Shown: positions 40,957 through 42,293 of the stretch, piece by piece
Position numbering within the stretch: position 1 is the first letter of the stretch
How the letters are laid out: each line of letters starts with the position of its first letter
From: Pannonibacter sp. SL95
GTDB lineage: Bacteria > Pseudomonadota > Alphaproteobacteria > Rhizobiales > Stappiaceae
DNA length: 64,000 nucleotides
Direction: 5' to 3'
Assembly: GCF_026672425.1 (NCBI RefSeq)
Contig: NZ_JAPPRC010000006.1
Span: 558,001 to 622,000 of the forward strand
Made by a program: the position numbers and the translations under genes
Notes under the pieces: model-generated
Seen by the model: only the letters and a program-made list of their open reading frames with translations
Database searches by the model: none
What the model was told of the DNA's origin: nothing

Positions 40957-41099
40957 ACACCTCGACACACCGTCGTCGTCCCGGACGAGCGTCAGCTCGA
41001 GCCGGGACCGGAGGGTCGAGGTTTCGGGGATCCAATGCGATGGAACCGGAGGCGCATTGGCTCACCGGTCCCGGGTCTTCGCTGCGCTGCGCCCGGGAT
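40957..41099. repeat. Palindromic repeat, family B, copy 2, left part
   Basis: The left arm (from ACACCTCGAC, with CGTCGTCGTCCCGGACG and CCGGGACCGGAGGGTCGAGG) and most of the right arm (CACCGGTCCCGGGTC to GCCCGGGAT) are present. The right arm then stops at 41099, where copy 1 continues GATGACGGCGG. That continuation resumes at 42267, after the IS110 element. Confidence 0.8.
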
Positions 41100-41130
41100 T
41101 GTTTGTTGTCCGTGGTGCTAGGGTAAAGGG

Positions 41131-41290
41131 GAAGCTGCGACCCTTAACCCGCAGCTTCAGCGTCAGGCGACCGTCCCGGGGTCGGGTTTTCACCCGCTGT
41201 CATCATGGCTCCCTGACGCTTCCCTTTTCCCGCTTGGAGAGTTGATTGGGCCTCTGGCTGACACCCACGCCCGCAAACAATCCGAAGCAC
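41131..41290 (+). ncRNA. Predicted bridge RNA of the IS110 element
   Basis: Three structures are read in order. The 5' stem-loop has GAAGCTGCG/CGCAGCTTC (41131-41139/41150-41158). The target-binding hairpin is closed by AGCGTCAGG/CCTGACGCT (41159-41167/41212-41220) with inner stem CGGGT/ACCCG (41183-41187/41192-41196). Its left guide CCCGGGGT (41175-41182) matches flank CCCGGGAT (7/8), and its right guide CTGTCATC (41197-41204) is complementary to flank GATGACGG (7 pairs plus one wobble). The donor-binding hairpin has outer stem GCTT/AAGC and inner stem GGGC/GCCC. Its left guide AGAGTTGAT (41238-41246) is identical to the right end of the element, and its right guide CAAACAATC (41274-41282) is the exact complement of the left end. 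RNA ends are estimates. Confidence 0.85.
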
Positions 41291-41308
41291 GTCAAGGATA
41301 GCACGGCC

Positions 41309-42268
41309 ATGCCCGCCCTGCAGCAGCCTCCCGCCCATGTCTGCGGCTTCGATGTCGCCAAGGACAGCATCACCGCCTTCGACACCGCCACCGGCCGTGT
41401 CACGACCTTCCCCAACCGCTCCGCCAGCATCCGCAAGGCGCTGACAGGCCTGTCGGCCGACTGCCTGTGCGTGTTGGAGCCGACCGGCGGCCACGAGCGC
41501 CTGCTGGTGGGCGAACTGACGGCAGCAGGCCTTGCCTGCCACCGGGCCGATACCGTTAAGGTCAAGGCATTCAGCCGGTCCTTCGGCCGTCTTGCCAAGA
41601 CAGACGCCATCGATGCCCAGGCTCTGGCCCGCTATGGCGAGGAGCGCTGGAAGACACTCGCCCTGTTCACGCCGGCCGATGAGACCCAGAGCACACTCGC
41701 CAGCCTCAATGCCCGCCGTCAGGAGCTTCTCGCCCTCAAGGTGGCCGAGCAGAACCGCTCAAAGATCCCCGGAGAGGGACCTGGCATCGCGATCATCCGC
41801 CGCTCCTGCCAGGTCATCCTGCGGGCGATCCTGCACGAGATCGAGGCCATCGACGCCGCCATCGAGGCGCTCGTCGACGCCTCGCCGCAGCTCGCCCGCC
41901 GGATCGAGGTCTGCTGCTCCCTGCCGGGCGTGGGCAAGCGCACCGCCATCACCCTCGCCGCAACCATGCCGGAACTGGGAACGATGGACCGGCGCCAGGC
42001 CGCAAGCCTCGCCGGGGTCGCCCCTCATCCCAAGGACAGCGGAACCCTCAAGGGATATCGCCGGATGCACGGCGGACGCTCCACCGTCAAGCCGGCCCTC
42101 TTCATGGCCGCCTTGTCCGCAAGCCGCGCAAACGGGCCATTAAAGGAGGTCTATCAAAGGCTTATCAACAACGGGAAGAAGCCAATCCTCGCAATCGCCG
42201 CCCTCATGCGAAAGATCATCGTCATCCTGAACGCAAGGATCAGGCACAACGCACAACAACAGAGTTGA
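41309..42268 (+). CDS. IS110-family transposase (bridge recombinase)
   Basis: A 319-residue recombinase with an N-terminal RuvC-like DEDD domain and a C-terminal Transposase_20 domain. Acidic residues are Asp 15 in CGFDVAKD, Glu 57 in LEPTGGHE, and Asp 99/Asp 102 in KTDAIDAQALARYG. The C-terminal half has SLPGVGKRTAITLA (helix-hairpin-helix) and Ser 244 in PKDSGTLKG, the candidate nucleophile by comparison with IS621 (Ser 241). The ATG at 41309 is chosen because an earlier in-frame TTG at 41246 lies inside the donor loop of the bridge RNA. The stop coincides with the right boundary of the element. Confidence 0.93.
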   Translation: MPALQQPPAHVCGFDVAKDSITAFDTATGRVTTFPNRSASIRKALTGLSADCLCVLEPTGGHERLLVGELTAAGLACHRADTVKVKAFSRSFGRLAKTDAIDAQALARYGEERWKTLALFTPADETQSTLASLNARRQELLALKVAEQNRSKIPGEGPGIAIIRRSCQVILRAILHEIEAIDAAIEALVDASPQLARRIEVCCSLPGVGKRTAITLAATMPELGTMDRRQAASLAGVAPHPKDSGTLKGYRRMHGGRSTVKPALFMAALSASRANGPLKEVYQRLINNGKKPILAIAALMRKIIVILNARIRHNAQQQS

Positions 42269-42293
42269 TGACGGCGGCGGAGGGCAGAGGTCC
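42267..42293. repeat. Palindromic repeat, family B, copy 2, right remnant
   Basis: GATGACGGCGGCGGAGGG and the following AGAGGTCC continue the right arm cut at 41099. Joining 41099 to 42270 restores GCCCGGGATGACGGCGG, equivalent to GTCCGGGATGACGGCGG in copy 1. Confidence 0.7.

What the first reader, a model, noticed from the sequence alone, without database searches (positions are those of the whole stretch)
41131..41290. Bridge RNA readable by eye in the left end of an IS110 element
Seen: an RNA of about 160 nt can fold into a 5' stem-loop plus two hairpins with internal loops, the order known for IS621-type bridge RNAs (5' stem-loop, target loop, donor loop). In the second hairpin, the left strand AGAGTTGAT (41238-41246) is identical to the right end of the element (42261-42269). 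The right strand CAAACAATC (41274-41282) is the exact reverse complement of the left boundary GATTGTTTG (41097-41105). Each guide sits on one side of an inner stem (GGGC/GCCC), the topology expected of donor guides. Known: in IS110-subgroup elements the left guide has the sequence of the top strand and the right guide is complementary to it, both including the core. Two independent 9-nt matches in the right order and polarity are unlikely by chance. This would be a new bridge RNA/recombinase pair.
Basis: partly seen in the sequence, partly recalled or inferred. Interest (0 to 1): 0.93.

Follow-up and report, generated by a model that had tools for sequence, protein, structure and literature searches.

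The report
REP-targeting IS110 element with bridge RNA
A jumping gene in an alphaproteobacterium carries a predicted guide RNA that matches both its own ends and the short genome repeats it inserts into; this looks like a well-supported new example of the known bridge-RNA mechanism, not a new mechanism.

Summary
The window carries a complete 1,170-bp IS110-group element (41100-42269). Its left end encodes a predicted bridge RNA of about 160 nt: 5' stem-loop, target loop, donor loop. Both donor guides match the element ends at the stated coordinates.

The host genome (genus of Pannonibacter carbonis) has 19 full copies. All 19 sit at the same point of a REP-like palindrome, [CGT]CCGGG(A/G)T|GAC. 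The left one, TCCCGGGGT (41174-41182), fits the REP stem. The right one, GTCAT (41199-41203), fits the constant REP head.

Across 68 insertions of related elements, left guides match their own targets at positions 1-5 far better than re-dealt ones (79% vs 43%, 0 of 5000). In the window's genome, sites matching the guide at position 2 are occupied 17 of 48 times, the T or G variants 2 of 165. One relative (G095) shows no such preference, another (G028) no significant one.

Handshake nucleotides, a promoter rebuilt in the circle, and the catalytic residues also fit IS621. Nothing here shows transcription or activity. Novelty is modest: a new member of a known kind, with unusually clean natural evidence for guide-target coupling.

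The parts
41064..41099 (+). Left part of the REP-like palindrome that is the target site; target positions 1-9 = 41091-41099 (GCCCGGGAT, core A41098 T41099)
   Evidence: Same kind of sequence flanks 19 of 19 full copies and occurs empty elsewhere in the genome as CGCCCGGG(A/G)TGAC, 24 places
41100..42269 (+). Complete IS110-group element, TGTTTG...GAGTTGAT, 1170 bp
   Evidence: Boundaries common to the 19 full copies
41100..41105 (+). Right donor half-site TGTTTG (left end of the element)
   Evidence: Reverse complement contained in the right donor guide
41119..41124 (+). Predicted -10 box TAGGGT; its -35 TTGATT is formed only in the circle by 42265-42269 plus 41100
   Evidence: TTGATT-17/18-TAnnnT in 21 of 21 representative elements, 20 of them with an observed right end; inferred, no transcript data
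41131..41158 (+). 5' stem-loop of the bridge RNA (GAAGCTGCG/CGCAGCTTC)
   Evidence: Folds; a stem of 9-14 pairs at this place in 21 of 21 representatives, 11 different left arms
41160..41219 (+). Target-binding hairpin
   Evidence: 13-pair outer helix with 5 pairs changed on both sides
41174..41182 (+). Left target guide TCCCGGGGT (matches target positions 2-9 CCCGGG(A/G)T)
   Evidence: Covaries with target across 22 element groups; occupancy bias in own genome
41199..41203 (+). Right target guide GTCAT (complement of target positions 8-12 ATGAC); pairing can extend to 41195 in this copy
   Evidence: 92 of 92 distinct right junctions examined read AT|GAC
41204..41205 (+). Putative handshake nucleotides CA of the target loop, complementary to donor T6 G7 rather than target G6
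   Evidence: Sequence; analogy to IS621 positions 81-82 (PMC11208158)
41232..41288 (+). Donor-binding hairpin, inner stem GGGC (41248-41251)/GCCC (41269-41272)
   Evidence: Helices invariant or nearly so in 21 of 21
41238..41246 (+). Left donor guide AGAGTTGAT
   Evidence: Identical to 42261-42269; positions 2-7 agree in 67 of 67 insertions, position 1 in 40 of 67
41274..41281 (+). Right donor guide CAAACAAT (complement of donor positions 8-15)
41282..41283 (+). Putative handshake nucleotides CC of the donor loop, complementary to target G6 G7
   Evidence: GGATTGTTTG is contiguous across target 6-7, core and left end; analogy to IS621 166-167
41309..42268 (+). IS110 recombinase, 319 aa, DEDD (D15 E57 D99 D102) and S244
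   Evidence: PF01548 and PF02371; residues invariant in 6 aligned proteins (which residues are catalytic is by analogy to IS621); profile matches IS621 8wt6 at 1.4e-34
42261..42269 (+). Left donor half-site AGAGTTGAT (right end of the element); it also encodes the last codon and the TGA stop (donor positions 6-8)
   Evidence: Open frame ending at this TGA in 64 of 67 insertions
42270..42272 (+). Right target half GAC (REP head, reverse complement GTC)

Best explanation
This is an IS110-group insertion sequence that moves by bridge-RNA-guided recombination. Shown by sequence: element ends, guides, target, conserved RNA structure, catalytic-residue pattern, guide-target coupling. Inferred: the element is excised as a circle, the joined ends form a promoter (TTGATT, 18 nt, TAGGGT), and this transcribes the bridge RNA from about 41131 and probably also the recombinase. 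The donor loop pairs with the joined ends (GAGTTGAT|TGTTTG). The target loop pairs with a REP-like repeat: its left guide with the REP stem (CCCGGG(A/G)T), its right guide with the REP head (GAC). Top strands are cut after the core (A/G)T|, exchanged with help from handshake nucleotides (CA in the target loop, CC in the donor loop), and the element lands between T9 and G10 of the REP. The left junction keeps a target-type core base and the right junction the donor's, as a cut after the core predicts.
For: 19 of 19 full copies at the same REP position, empty sites present. Left-guide/target identity at positions 1-5 is 0.79 against 0.43 permuted, 0 of 5000; with 16 distinct guides 4.00 of 5 against 2.09, 0 of 20,000; a sharp edge at position 1. 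Own-genome occupancy by base at position 2: C 17 of 48, T 1 of 42, G 1 of 123 (C against G+T p = 9e-11). G102 (guide T): 6 T and 1 A inserted; T against C+G p = 0.0016. At core position 8 the window's guide (G) goes with G sites (13 G, 6 A inserted; 67 G, 144 A empty; p = 0.0021), whereas in five genomes with guide A the insertions favour A (23 A, 5 G; expected A 15.0; MH odds ratio 4.5; one-sided p = 0.001) (one search gave the window's genome as 12 and 7 by my miscount). Right donor guide and left end agree at donor position 14 in 65 of 69, T in 45 and C in 20. Structure: 99.5% cells paired, 5 pairs with both-side changes, 0 of 500 shuffles; slid versions 36-49%. Junction promoter in 21 of 21, scoring above the integrated left end in each. 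Recombinase.
Against: No transcript, circle or activity data. G095 (left guide G at position 2) shows no position-2 preference: T3 C1 G1 inserted against 55 G, 50 C, 49 T empty. G007 type B (guide A at position 2) matches none of its 5 targets there. G028 is not significant (p = 0.08). No single one of the five A-guide genomes is significant at position 8. Position 1 matches only 56%, and own guide is best or tied for only 11 of 16 targets. Some guides mismatch the core: the left target guide ends AC in 3 Mesorhizobium groups, the left donor guide reads AGAGTTGGA in 5 G095 copies and AGAGTTGAC in L058; the left donor guide also mismatches the end at position 1 in 27 of 67, and the right donor guide mismatches at position 12 in 3, position 14 in 4 and position 15 in 15 of 69. 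The donor hairpin hardly varies, so its structure has almost no covariation support. Related elements are not independent in the permutation test.
Confidence: 0.95

Rival explanations
1. The recombinase protein itself recognises the REP palindrome, and the structured left end is only a 5' UTR or small RNA regulating the recombinase, as reported for ISPpu9 (Asr9/Ssr9).
For: REP-specific insertion was once discussed as recognition of palindromes by transposases (PMC1525189, passages); [quoted passage not shown] A ribosome-binding-site-like AAGGAT follows the RNA.
Against: Does not explain two exact 9-nt donor matches, the left guide covarying with the target, or single-base occupancy biases at positions 2 and 8, the latter with opposite sign for G and A guides.
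Confidence: 0.03
2. The guide-target similarity is shared ancestry: related hosts have related REPs and related elements, without pairing.
For: Groups are related, and the permutation does not model the tree. G095 and G007 type B show poor matches at position 2.
Against: REP and element are unlinked loci. The signal is confined to positions 1-5 of the guide, while adjacent positions -3, -1 and 0 match less than chance. Bias within one genome (17 of 48 against 2 of 165) cannot come from ancestry of hosts, although REP variants differ outside the guide region too.
Confidence: 0.02

Closest known systems
IS621 (IS110 group), bridge RNA and recombinase (PMC11208160, PMC11208158; passages read)
   Same: Recombinase family and catalytic-residue pattern; bridge RNA upstream of the gene in the long left end; 5' stem-loop, target loop, donor loop; guide polarity; two-base core with cut after it; handshake positions; promoter rebuilt across the joined ends; REP target.
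   Different: Core (A/G)T/AT instead of CT; different guides, target and host; stop codon lies inside the donor half-site, whereas the IS621 right-left end construct of 298 bp with a 191-bp left end implies a right end of about 107 bp (inference); right donor pairing contiguous in the window copy, discontiguous in IS621.
ISCro4 (solved structure 9t56)
   Same: Recombinase homology (7.4e-35).
   Different: Only the sequence match was seen; no comparison of guides made.
ISRm19 of Sinorhizobium meliloti (IS110 family, REP-inserting, PMC1525189)
   Same: IS110 family, inserts into REPs of an alphaproteobacterium, 4 of 4.
   Different: Sequence not obtained here; whether it belongs to this clade is not tested.
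ISPa11, ISPpu9, ISPpu10 (REP-targeting, PMC1525189; ISPa11 is treated as IS1111 type with a seekRNA in PMC11187229)
   Same: REP targets; RNA-guided for ISPa11.
   Different: ISPa11's RNA maps downstream of the gene; here it lies upstream.

Membership tests
IS110-group element with bridge RNA (IS621 type) | DEDD RuvC-like plus Transposase_20 recombinase with catalytic serine | tested here: met
IS110-group element with bridge RNA (IS621 type) | Long non-coding left end upstream of the gene holding the RNA | tested here: met
   209 nt upstream (41100-41308), none downstream
IS110-group element with bridge RNA (IS621 type) | 5' stem-loop plus two hairpins with internal loops, conserved in homologues | tested here: met
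   donor hairpin conserved but almost without covariation
IS110-group element with bridge RNA (IS621 type) | Left and right donor guides match the joined ends, core included | tested here: met
   Exact in the window copy. Across relatives positions 2-7 of the left guide agree in 67 of 67, core mismatched in 6 of 67; right guide positions 8-11 and 13 agree in 69 of 69
IS110-group element with bridge RNA (IS621 type) | Left and right target guides match the target, and the left guide covaries with it | tested here: met
   right guide and right target invariant, so no covariation there; G095 and G007 type B fit poorly at position 2
IS110-group element with bridge RNA (IS621 type) | Handshake nucleotides complementary to the partner DNA | tested here: met
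   CA to donor TG, CC to target GG; invariant, therefore weak evidence
IS110-group element with bridge RNA (IS621 type) | Promoter formed in the excised circle | tested here: inconclusive
   Consensus-like match in 21 of 21, but the -10 boxes match TATAAT at only 3-5 of 6 and activity was not tested
IS110-group element with bridge RNA (IS621 type) | RNA is transcribed, binds the recombinase and directs recombination | not testable with these tools
   Needs experiment
IS1111 group (seekRNA downstream, long subterminal inverted repeats) | Guide RNA downstream of the gene | tested here: not met
   The gene's stop codon lies in the right end itself

The most novel reading that the evidence does not exclude
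A clade of REP-parasitic IS110 elements in Hyphomicrobiales in which donor ends, donor loop and right target guide are nearly frozen, and only about five nucleotides of the left target guide evolve to follow each host's REP stem. The donor half-site is locked because it is at once the -35 box, the last codons and stop of the recombinase, and the guide-paired site. A G at core position 8 of the window's guide, in place of A, shifts insertion from A-type to G-type REPs.
Probability: 0.6. Interest if true: 0.5.

Novelty: new member of a known kind. Interest (0 to 1): 0.42.

Why it matters
It adds a well-delimited predicted bridge RNA/recombinase pair with known ends, target and 19 natural insertions. 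REPs give a natural specificity assay: about two hundred near-identical empty sites in one genome, of which the guide-matching ones are preferentially filled. It suggests natural retargeting by a few guide bases between hosts, and shows how promoter, stop codon and guide pairing can share the same nine bases.

Tried and rejected
Rfam, both thresholds: no bridge-RNA match; the only weak hit, mir-1343 at 41018-41073 (23 bits, gathering 51), is below threshold and lies partly on the REP palindrome, so I treat it as chance. Plasmid collection: 948 records, none at 60% identity or above; best of the 40 listed rows about 40%, not used further. RNAalifold on A2 misaligned the 5' stem, so I scored that stem per sequence and left it out of the pair count. 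Start codon TTG 41246 from the ORF listing rejected in favour of ATG 41309, which is ATG in 69 of 69 insertions at the aligned position. A test of A/G at core position 8 in G032 uses empty sites that are not its own REP type; without it the pooled test becomes 20 A, 5 G, p = 0.002. My first count of G and A junctions in the window's genome (12 and 7) was wrong; one search recounts 13 and 6.

Rows dropped before the counts (tallied): 75 loci, of which 30 had no N-terminus, 15 were below 45% identity, 29 were a place already held, and 1 (L103) had no junction pattern. L128 had no readable target loop. L071 had no observed right end; a typed placeholder end was used for it in the promoter scan. 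The invariance of GG at target positions 6-7 was partly required by my junction pattern; only L103 of the loci reaching that step failed it. The right side was rechecked without the pattern: 92 of 92, plus one distant locus (L121) without a match.

Full report
What is there. The window contains an IS110 recombinase gene at 41309-42268 (PF01548 and PF02371). A profile of it and five homologues matches the solved IS621 and ISCro4 recombinases (1.4e-34 and 7.4e-35), and D15, E57, D99, D102 and S244 are invariant in the six. The genome holding the window has 19 full copies and one 3' fragment of about 428 bp. A 97-98% identical single copy is in Pannonibacter carbonis (L058 = L098), a genome that the tool places in the window's own genus, so the host is a Pannonibacter or very near it.

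Ends and target. All 19 full copies were fetched with flanks. Each is flanked on the left by ...CCGGG(A/G)T and on the right by GAC, inside a REP-like palindrome. Repeats of the same kind occur empty as CCGGG(A/G)TGAC, often in opposed pairs. This fixes the element as TGTTTG...GAGTTGAT (41100-42269, 1170 bp) and the insertion point as after (A/G)T. The left junction has 13 G and 6 A at core position 8; the right has A in 19 of 19. IS621 cuts the top strand directly after its CT core (PMC11208158, passages read), which predicts a target base on the left and the donor base on the right.

Shuffling 150 nt of the left end 20,000 times gave both together 0 times. Across relatives the left donor guide and the right end agree at positions 2-7 in 67 of 67 insertions, but position 1 differs in 27 and the core in 6. 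The right donor guide follows a T-to-C change in the left end (donor position 14: T in 45, C in 20, mismatch in 4 of 69).

Numbering the target so that the core is positions 8-9, the left strand of the first hairpin holds TCCCGGGGT (41174-41182), which fits CCCGGG(A/G)T at positions 2-9. The right strand holds GTCAT (41199-41203), complementary to ATGAC at 8-12. I collected 69 distinct insertions of related elements, recombinase identity 47% and up; 68 had a readable left guide, in 22 genome-by-element groups, 19 of the 68 being in the window's own genome. Positions 1-5 of the guide are identical to the element's own target in 79% of cases against 43% when targets are dealt out anew (0 of 5000). 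With one entry per distinct guide (16) the score is 4.00 of 5 against 2.09 (0 of 20,000). Examples: GCGTAGGAT/GCGTAGGAT (L099), CCCTGGGAT/CCCTGGGAT (L104), CCCTAGGAT/CCCTAGGAT (L119). Misfits exist: L106 CCCTGGGAT/CCCAAGGAT, G014 AGCCGGGAT/GCCCGGGAT; own guide is best or tied for 11 of 16. Positions -3, -1 and 0 match less often than chance, so the guide has a sharp edge. The right target triplet is GAC in 92 of 92 distinct right junctions, and GTCATC is in the right guide of all 21 aligned representatives. The REP head is thus read by a fixed guide and the variable REP stem by an evolving one.

A natural specificity test. In the window's genome, sites CCCGGGRTGAC, TCCGGGRTGAC and GCCGGGRTGAC occur empty 31, 41 and 122 times. 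Insertions are 17, 1 and 1. The guide has C there; p = 9e-11 for C against the rest. In G102 (guide T) insertions are 6 T and 1 A, with 35 C, 59 T and 85 G empty (p = 0.0016). In G028 (guide T) the trend is not significant (p = 0.08). In G095 (guide G) there is no preference, which speaks against strict use of position 2. REP variants also differ outside the guide, so part of the bias may have other causes. At core position 8 the window's guide has G, the other 21 groups A. Its insertions favour G (13 G, 6 A; empty 67 G, 144 A; p = 0.0021; within position-2 C sites p = 0.016), while pooled insertions of five genomes with guide A favour A (23 against 5, expected 15.0 A; p = 0.001), none of the five being significant alone. 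This opposite sign is hard to explain without pairing.

RNA structure. Twenty-one representative left ends were aligned. The target and donor hairpins keep 99.5% of cells paired; five pairs in the target hairpin change on both sides; no shuffle of 500 reaches this and slid versions pair at 36-49%. The donor hairpin is almost invariant and so gives next to no covariation. A 5' stem of 9-14 pairs exists in 21 of 21, with 11 different left arms.

Handshake and promoter. In IS621, two nucleotides next to each right guide pair with the partner DNA after strand exchange. Here CA (41204-41205) fits donor T6 G7, and CC (41282-41283) fits target G6 G7; the complement GGATTGTTTG runs unbroken through target, core and left end. 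These positions do not vary, so this is agreement, not proof. Joining the ends creates TTGATT, 17-18 nt, TAnnnT in 21 of 21 representatives (one with an assumed right end), each scoring above its integrated left end. The -35 follows from the constant ends; the -10 boxes fit TATAAT at 3-5 of 6.

An economy worth noting. The gene's stop TGA is donor positions 6-8; the frame is open to that stop in 64 of 67 insertions, the exceptions being L058, L060 and L119. The last bases of the element are donor site, stop codon and -35 box together. That may be why the ends hardly vary while targets do (inference).

Comparison with print. Bridge RNAs as a general feature of IS110 and their covariation with targets are published (PMC11208160, passages). 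REP targets for IS621 and REP-targeting IS110 elements had been reported by 2006 (PMC1525189, abstract and passages). In one study the RNA lies upstream of the gene in the IS110-type element and downstream in IS1111 types (PMC11187229, passages). A search for Pannonibacter with IS110 listed one paper, on Paracoccus yeei (listing only); one for bridge RNA, IS110, Mesorhizobium, REP sequence and Alphaproteobacteria (three of five, 2024 on) listed two, neither by title on this clade. Supplements were not readable, so I cannot exclude that it is in a table.

Verdict. It is a new member of a known kind, with good natural evidence for guide-directed target choice.

Noticed in passing
L057 (G000:C6:1136258-1137385): A 3' fragment of the element (about 428 bp, 98% identical) lies about 2 kb from a full copy (L042), without a left end.
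   Followed up: no
L113, L114, L139 (Woodsholea maritima contig ends): Recombinase C-termini at 92, 91 and 83% identity over about 129, 125 and 29 residues in Woodsholea maritima; suggests recent horizontal transfer. The contigs end inside the element.
   Followed up: no
L058 (Pannonibacter carbonis): Single copy with an internal TAG in the recombinase and a left donor guide changed to AGAGTTGAC; probably dead.
   Followed up: partly
L103: A homologue whose 5' part, including the left end and 5' stem-loop, appears replaced by unrelated sequence while the donor hairpin is intact.
   Followed up: no
L151, L171, L183-L185 (G095): Left donor guide reads AGAGTTGGA while the right end reads TGAGTTGAT in five copies, so a core mismatch in the left donor guide seems tolerated.
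   Followed up: partly
L078-L093: Empty REPs often stand as inverted pairs of two variants (...GCGCCCGGG(A/G)TGAC and ...TTGGCCGGG(A/G)TGAC), roughly 115-170 nt apart by the coordinates, a BIME-like arrangement.
   Followed up: partly
L043, L051: Two insertions have G at core position 8 although the opposite REP arm is of the A type; possible repair of a core mismatch or plain variation.
   Followed up: no
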